64,000 nt of DNA from Ovis canadensis (Eukaryota; Chordata; Mammalia; Artiodactyla; Bovidae). Shown piece after piece: positions 25,501 through 25,602 of the stretch. Below the pieces are notes generated by a model, which saw only the letters and a program-made list of their open reading frames with translations, was not told the DNA's origin and made no database searches. The DNA is taken from assembly GCF_042477335.2 (NCBI RefSeq), contig NC_091260.1, positions 51,479,001 to 51,543,000 of the forward strand. Reading direction: 5' to 3'. Within the stretch, counting starts at the first letter, position 1, and each line of letters begins with the position of its first letter. Position numbers and translations under genes: made by a program.

Positions 25501-25602
25501 GTTTCAAAAGAAGACTTTTTGAACTATTATGCTGGTGTTAGTGCTTCTATTGACACTGATGCCTATTTCGTTTTAATGATGAGAGAATCCTGGAGATTAT
25601 GA
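25501..25602 (+). CDS. CAPSL: Candidate alternative CAPSL terminal exon
   Basis: A 102-nt exon-like block encodes 33 residues then TGA at 25600-25602, precisely the length, phase 0 entry and stop position of the usual terminal exon. It starts [13 protein letters not shown] and ends MMRESWRL. Twenty-three of 33 residues are identical to exon 16993-17094, while nucleotides agree at only 70 of 102. The shared 13-residue core [13 protein letters not shown] differs only by seven synonymous changes. A strong pyrimidine tract and CCTCTCAG precede it at once. Splicing from the donor at 12191 would give a 208-residue variant. It could also be a relic, but the frame, acceptor and stop are all intact. 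Confidence 0.72.

What the first reader, a model, noticed from the sequence alone, without database searches (positions are those of the whole stretch)
25501..25602. Second, intact terminal exon for CAPSL 8.4 kb downstream of the usual one
Seen: the block and the usual terminal exon (16993-17094) are both exactly 102 nt, both enter in phase 0, both end in TGA, and share 23 of 33 residues, while only 70 of 102 bases agree. The shared 13-residue core carries seven synonymous and no amino-acid differences. Outside the exons, flanks show no similarity. The downstream copy has a strong pyrimidine tract, CTCTCAG, and an AATAAA at 25806. Inference: an old tandem exon duplication kept under purifying selection and used as a mutually exclusive alternative last exon, with the choice set by poly(A) use at 17244 against splicing onward.
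Basis: partly seen in the sequence, partly recalled or inferred. Interest (0 to 1): 0.88.

Follow-up and report, generated by a model that had tools for sequence, protein, structure and literature searches.

The report
Ancient second ending for CAPSL gene
A ruminant-like genome carries a second, intact, well-preserved last coding exon for the cilia-linked calcium-binding gene CAPSL; fish and a frog have matching alternative protein endings, so it looks like a very old either/or exon switch, although no transcript using it was seen here.

Summary
25501-25602 is a 102-nt, phase-0 exon ending in TGA that shares 23 of 33 residues with the usual CAPSL last exon (16993-17094). Synonymous sites are saturated while amino-acid change is low.

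The 120 listed CAPSL homologues (of 173 hits) end in one of two tail types, U (usual) or D (downstream). In five species (four fish, one frog) two CAPSL proteins are identical up to this exon and then differ, one U and one D. Among cartilaginous fish both types occur, in different species. Platypus has a D isoform. The window exon scores D (+17.2 bits).

Nine further D exons (one named: black rhinoceros) match the window exon at 28-31 of 33 residues, while the sequence before them has diverged.

Not shown: any placental transcript joining 12190 to 25501, or that poly(A) choice controls it. Nine of ten such exons carry Asp where 119 of 120 listed tails have Glu, at position 12 of the fourth EF-hand loop. 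Inference: the swap retunes that EF-hand and the C-terminal helix. It is a new member of a known kind.

The parts
8054..8190 (+). CAPSL first coding exon (ATG; ends phase 2 before GTAGGA)
11524..11701 (+). CAPSL second coding exon (EF-hands 1-2)
11981..12190 (+). CAPSL third coding exon; ends phase 0 with donor GTGAGT at 12191, the proposed shared donor for both last exons
16993..17094 (+). usual last coding exon (class U), [33 protein letters not shown]
   Evidence: log-odds -27.9
17244..17249 (+). AATAAA after the usual last exon
25478..25500 (+). pyrimidine tract and CAG acceptor of the downstream last exon
   Evidence: 18 of 20 pyrimidines
25501..25602 (+). downstream alternative last coding exon (class D), [33 protein letters not shown]
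25806..25811 (+). first AATAAA after the downstream last exon (others at 25975 and 26059)

Best explanation
25501-25602 is a real, selectively kept alternative last exon (class D) of CAPSL, one of a pair that arose by duplication of the terminal coding exon early in vertebrate history. The pre-mRNA can splice the donor at 12190 either to 16993 (class U) and end at the poly(A) signal near 17244, or skip it, splice to 25501 and end after 25806. Both products are 208 residues and differ only in the last 33, which hold the second half of the fourth EF-hand and the C-terminal helix. Shown: the anatomy, the coding constraint, and U/D protein pairs with identical N parts in other vertebrates. Inferred: use in this animal, that terminal-exon competition decides the outcome, and that the swap retunes metal or partner binding of a cilia-associated EF-hand protein.
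For: Sander, Pseudophryne, Betta and Gouania each have two CAPSL proteins, named as isoforms, identical over 174 of 174 residues, and Scleropages two over 175 of 175, with one U and one D tail (5 of 8 pairs compared). All 120 listed tails score at least 4.8 bits D-wards or 8.6 bits U-wards; held out, the ten paired tails still separate (U -9.1 to -24.4, D +10.9 to +24.7); window D scores +17.2, window U -27.9. In a 53-tail tree all U tails lie on one side of a 92/86 branch, and window D groups with mammal-like and platypus D. Nine other mammal-like D exons are 28-31 of 33 identical to window D, each preceded by Gln. From the window exon, neutral drift of 0.2 substitutions per site leaves an open frame with 30 or more residues in 0.1% of runs, and in 0 of 5000 runs at each of 0.25, 0.3, 0.35 and 0.4. 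No convincing copy of the other CAPSL exons argues against a second gene.
Against: No placental protein or transcript joining the third coding exon to D was found among listed hits; clustering at 90% could hide one, since U and D isoforms of the window are 95% identical. One mammal-like D exon (P0214) lacks the stop and runs on 43 residues. Window D has U-like residues at tail positions 11 and 19, and its plain identity to D tails (mean 23.1 of 33) is only slightly above that to U tails (22.1). The tail of the separate gene CAPS also scores D-wards (+5.6), so a positive score alone is not proof. Bird and turtle D tails do not group with mammal D in the tree, and the AU test does not reject an independent mammal duplication (p 0.389, 33 columns). 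Confidence was lowered from 0.85 on rechecking, as other species' acceptors are seen only as Gln in protein, not as CAG in DNA, and for the CAPS control.
Confidence: 0.82

Rival explanations
1. Relic exon: an ancient alternative last exon whose use has ceased or is ceasing in placental mammals; the intact frame in this species is residual.
For: No placental D isoform among the listed database representatives; P0214 has lost the stop; D differs more among mammal-like sequences (28-31 of 33 to the window) than the few placental U tails listed do. At a neutral distance of 0.1 per site, 8% of simulated copies would still pass.
Against: Ten D exons (window included) are open over all 33 codons and 90% identical on average (minimum 79%), while the stretch before them is 27% identical in the nine that read like intron.
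Confidence: 0.12
2. Independent, mammal-specific duplication of the usual last exon, unrelated to the D class of other vertebrates.
For: AU test p 0.389; U-like residues at tail positions 11 and 19 in mammal-like D.
Against: K3, L7, L25 and S30 are shared with bird, turtle and platypus D tails, and A21 with bird and turtle; log-odds +17.2; placement on the D side.
Confidence: 0.06
3. Last exon of a separate tandem CAPSL-like gene or a pseudogene of one.
For: Fish have other CAPSL-like genes; the Erpetoichthys and Polyodon pairs differ along the whole protein.
Against: No convincing second copy of any other CAPSL exon in the window; five U/D pairs have identical N parts.
Confidence: 0.03
4. Chance open frame or artefact.
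For: 33 codons is short.
Against: E 7e-15; 0 of 20,000 random placements; best other six-frame match 9 of 33; nine other homologous exons.
Confidence: 0.001

Closest known systems
CAPSL alternative C-terminal isoforms ('isoform X1/X2' in NCBI names) in fish and a frog
   Same: Same exon boundary, same length, same two tail classes
   Different: There they are annotated isoforms; here no transcript was seen, and the EF4 loop position 12 of D is Asp instead of Glu
Human C-terminal tandem duplicated exon substitutions (PMC9741552: 236 events, 77 C-terminal)
   Same: Homologous tandem last coding exons giving proteins identical save for a homologous tail; mostly ancient
   Different: CAPSL is not named in that paper's main text; its supplements could not be read
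Calcyphosine (CAPS, PDB 3e3r)
   Different: A separate gene; whether CAPS has an alternative last exon was not examined

Membership tests
CAPSL (calcyphosine-like) | Full-length sequence match to CAPSL | tested here: met
   D isoform to PDB 11yj chain 1A, 'Calcyphosin-like protein', E 7e-132 over 208 of 208 residues
CAPSL (calcyphosine-like) | Four EF-hand repeats | tested here: inconclusive
   Pfam EF-hand_1 stretches at E up to 1: 4 in the U isoform, 3 in the D isoform; the loop half in the third coding exon is shared, but the fourth EF-hand scores weaker with D
Tandem-duplicated alternative last exon | Two homologous exons in tandem, same length, phase and stop | tested here: met
Tandem-duplicated alternative last exon | Each copy has its own acceptor and poly(A) signal | tested here: met
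   Sequence motifs only
Tandem-duplicated alternative last exon | Both copies are spliced to the same upstream exon in transcripts | not testable with these tools
   No RNA data for this species; in five other vertebrates protein pairs with identical N parts are on record
Tandem-duplicated alternative last exon | Purifying selection on the copies | tested here: met
   pN 0.184, pS 0.875 between copies; exon against upstream conservation. Orthologue DNA for a branch dN/dS was not available
Ancient vertebrate class D tail | D-type diagnostic residues and position in the tail tree | tested here: met
   log-odds +17.2, but the outside tail of CAPS scores +5.6; on the D side of a 92/86 branch; residues 11 and 19 are U-like
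Ancient vertebrate class D tail | Single origin of mammal and other D exons, against independent duplication | tested here: inconclusive
   AU test p 0.389 on 33 columns

The most novel reading that the evidence does not exclude
CAPSL carries an exon switch as old as vertebrates that was overlooked in placental mammals. In that lineage the downstream version replaced the metal-coordinating Glu at position 12 of the fourth EF-hand loop with Asp, so that choosing the last exon swaps a more Ca2+-type for a weaker or Mg2+-type site, and swaps the C-terminal helix, of a cilia-associated calcium-binding protein. The D-like tails of a hemichordate and (weakly) of CAPS hint that D is the ancestral ending and the textbook ending (U) the derived one.
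Probability: 0.3. Interest if true: 0.62.

Novelty: new member of a known kind. Interest (0 to 1): 0.5.

Why it matters
Conserved tandem-duplicated exon swaps are described as rare, mostly ancient and important (PMC9741552, abstract). If this one is used, mammal CAPSL has a second protein product that the placental homologues listed here do not show. CAPSL variants are reported in familial exudative vitreoretinopathy (PMC11392532) and CAPSL was a candidate gene for multiple symmetric lipomatosis (PMC6559987; for both, the start of the abstract in the listing), so variants in a missed coding exon would go unscored. It also offers a clean two-exon model for terminal-exon choice in ciliated cells.

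Tried and rejected
A mammal-level duplication was considered first and set aside after the same-species U/D pairs appeared in fish and a frog, though the AU test does not exclude it. A tandem gene copy was rejected because no other CAPSL exon is convincingly repeated in the window. DNA of other mammals' D exons was sought and not found: viral contigs gave 5 pattern matches and no relative; genome contigs gave one bacterial locus, L001, at 40% identity, judged a chance match. A search for more D-exon open frames with P0203 gave 8 hits, one of them (P0218) new; its origin is unknown and it was not counted. P0215 and P0216, exon-only matches at 73% and 69%, were not counted with the nine. Erpetoichthys and Polyodon pairs were dropped as isoform pairs because their N parts differ (128 of 175 and 132 of 176), and one Scleropages pair because both tails are the same. 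The title of PDB 11yj could not be seen and it is not among the 50 rows of the structure comparison, so no claim about its source is made. In print: no listed paper is, by its title and the start of its abstract, about an alternative last exon of CAPSL. Searches were capped (10 of 32,160, 15 of 174 and 25 of 101 papers shown; searches show 0 CAPSL occurrences in each listed row, and one search did not ask for CAPSL); one search shows 0 CAPSL occurrences in 9 of 9. CAPSL has 0 occurrences in the main text of PMC9741552, PMC5740500 and PMC9013439.

Full report
WHAT IS THERE. The window carries CAPSL on the + strand: coding exons 8054-8190, 11524-11701 and 11981-12190, then the usual last exon 16993-17094. 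The product spliced to the downstream exon matches PDB 11yj chain 1A, 'Calcyphosin-like protein', over all 208 residues. The block 25501-25602 reads [33 protein letters not shown], the usual exon [33 protein letters not shown]. Both are 102 nt, enter in phase 0, follow CAG and end in TGA. An IL7R-like last exon lies at 60669-61196 on the - strand (gene label recalled), so D sits in the CAPSL-IL7R interval. Long reverse-transcriptase frames that I recognise from memory as BovB suggest a ruminant; no call names the species.

MORE THAN CHANCE. 23 of 33 residues agree while 32 of 102 bases differ, and the differences fall 9, 4 and 19 on codon positions 1, 2 and 3. Nei-Gojobori counts give pN 0.184 and pS 0.875, so synonymous sites are saturated. 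Placing the same number of changes at random never kept 23 residues (0 of 20,000). The next best ungapped match to the usual exon's 33 residues in six frames of the window is 9 of 33. Significant DNA similarity between the two places is confined to 65 nt inside the exon. No other CAPSL exon is convincingly repeated (best outside the gene 12 residues at E 0.32), so this is an exon-level duplication. The D exon with 500 bases either side matches nothing else in the window at E 1e-3 apart from the usual exon; the usual exon's 3' flank has one 28-nt match at 20881-20908.

AN OLD PAIR. A protein search with the last 44 residues of the D isoform gave 173 hits, 120 listed. Their tails fall into two types. 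I seeded profiles with five same-species pairs and retrained them on non-mammal tails: 51 U and 61 D. Eight tails of mammals (one, P0061, unnamed) were kept out of training; seven score -19.4 to -27.9 and platypus isoform X2 +25.8. Trained D tails score +4.8 to +46.7 and U tails -8.6 to -43.6. Window U scores -27.9 and window D +17.2. The score of window D rests mainly on S2, K3, A21, V24, L25, S30 and R32 and is reduced by D5, A11 and T19. A control against over-reading: the tail of the separate gene CAPS scores +5.6. Of eight protein pairs compared in full, five (Sander, Pseudophryne, Betta, Gouania, Scleropages) are identical over 174 or 175 residues and then differ, one U and one D; two (Erpetoichthys, Polyodon) differ throughout and look like separate genes; one (Scleropages X1/X2) has the same tail. 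Four of the five pairs are named as isoforms and share a contig length; the fifth U protein, P0107, carries no isoform label. That is the signature of one gene with alternative last exons. Cartilaginous fish have both types, in different species (U: Callorhinchus, Rhinoraja; D: Pristiophorus, Hemitrygon, Mobula, Heterodontus, Scyliorhinus), which places the split before living jawed vertebrates if the classes are right. Each left out of its own training, lamprey scores U (-27.7), hagfish D (+19.1) and the hemichordate Glandiceps D (+11.8). A tree of 53 chosen tails puts all U on one side of a 92/86 branch and window D with mammal-like D, near platypus. Bird and turtle D tails lie elsewhere among D. 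With 33 columns the deeper forks are weak, and forcing mammal U and D together is not rejected (AU p 0.389).

OTHER MAMMALS. A query of 80 residues (end of the third coding exon plus D) gave 96 hits. Nine are open frames holding the D exon with no CAPSL upstream exon: P0202, P0203, P0205 (Diceros bicornis), P0206, P0207, P0208, P0209, P0212 and P0214; that the unnamed eight are mammals is inferred from similarity. They are 28-31 of 33 identical to window D, and each has Gln directly before the exon, as a CAG acceptor would give, though the DNA was not seen. Among the ten sequences the exon is 90% identical on average (lowest pair 79%) and 25 of 33 positions are invariant; the 15 residues before it are 23% identical, or 27% without P0205, whose upstream part does not look like intron and may belong to a gene model. 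P0212 and P0214 look like close kin (upstream stretches nearly the same). P0214 has no stop after the exon and runs on 43 residues, which speaks against strict constraint in that lineage. Only open, similar frames can be found this way, so broken copies in other mammals would be missed. A simulation of neutral drift from the window exon gives open frames with 30 or more residues kept in 8.2%, 0.7% and 0.1% of runs at 0.10, 0.15 and 0.20 substitutions per site and in 0 of 5000 at each of 0.25, 0.30, 0.35 and 0.40; neutral distances between placental orders are, from memory, about 0.3.

WHAT IS KNOWN. Tandem duplicated last exons are an established class: 236 human events, 77 at the C terminus (PMC9741552: abstract, one section and passages). 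CAPSL is not named in its main text, nor in those of PMC5740500 and PMC9013439 (passages). No listed paper or 75 is, by title and start of abstract, about a CAPSL alternative ending, but three of those lists were capped. For two CAPSL papers the find step returned 0 occurrences of 'exon', 'isoform' and 'transcript variant' (PMC6559987, PMC11392532); their full texts were not read.

LIMITS. No RNA evidence in any placental mammal; no DNA of other species' D exons; species of eight of the nine mammal-like exons unnamed; the genome search did not complete (10 tries). Database clustering at 90% could hide placental D isoforms inside U clusters such as P0027 (229 members). The verdict is a real, conserved alternative last exon with use in this animal still to be shown. 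On rechecking, confidence was lowered from 0.85 to 0.82 for the CAPS control and because other species' acceptors were inferred from Gln.

Noticed in passing
60669-61196 (-): Last exon of an IL7R-like gene (C-terminal ...[14 protein letters not shown]; label recalled), tail to tail with CAPSL.
   Followed up: partly
28133-30917, 34118-35128, 51988-52701, 53878-56434: Several long reverse-transcriptase frames recognised from memory as BovB-type elements, suggesting a ruminant genome.
   Followed up: no
45027-49939 (+): Remains of an L1-type element (long frames resembling ORF1 and the reverse transcriptase; label recalled), with similar frames at 35721-38542 (-).
   Followed up: no
25501-25602 codon 5: Asp at EF-hand-4 loop position 12 in 9 of 10 mammal-like D exons, Glu in 119 of 120 listed CAPSL tails.
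   Followed up: partly
Protein P0214: A mammal-like D exon without its stop codon, running on 43 residues.
   Followed up: no
Protein P0113 (Glandiceps): A hemichordate CAPSL has a D-like tail (+11.8 when left out of training), hinting that U may be the derived exon.
   Followed up: partly
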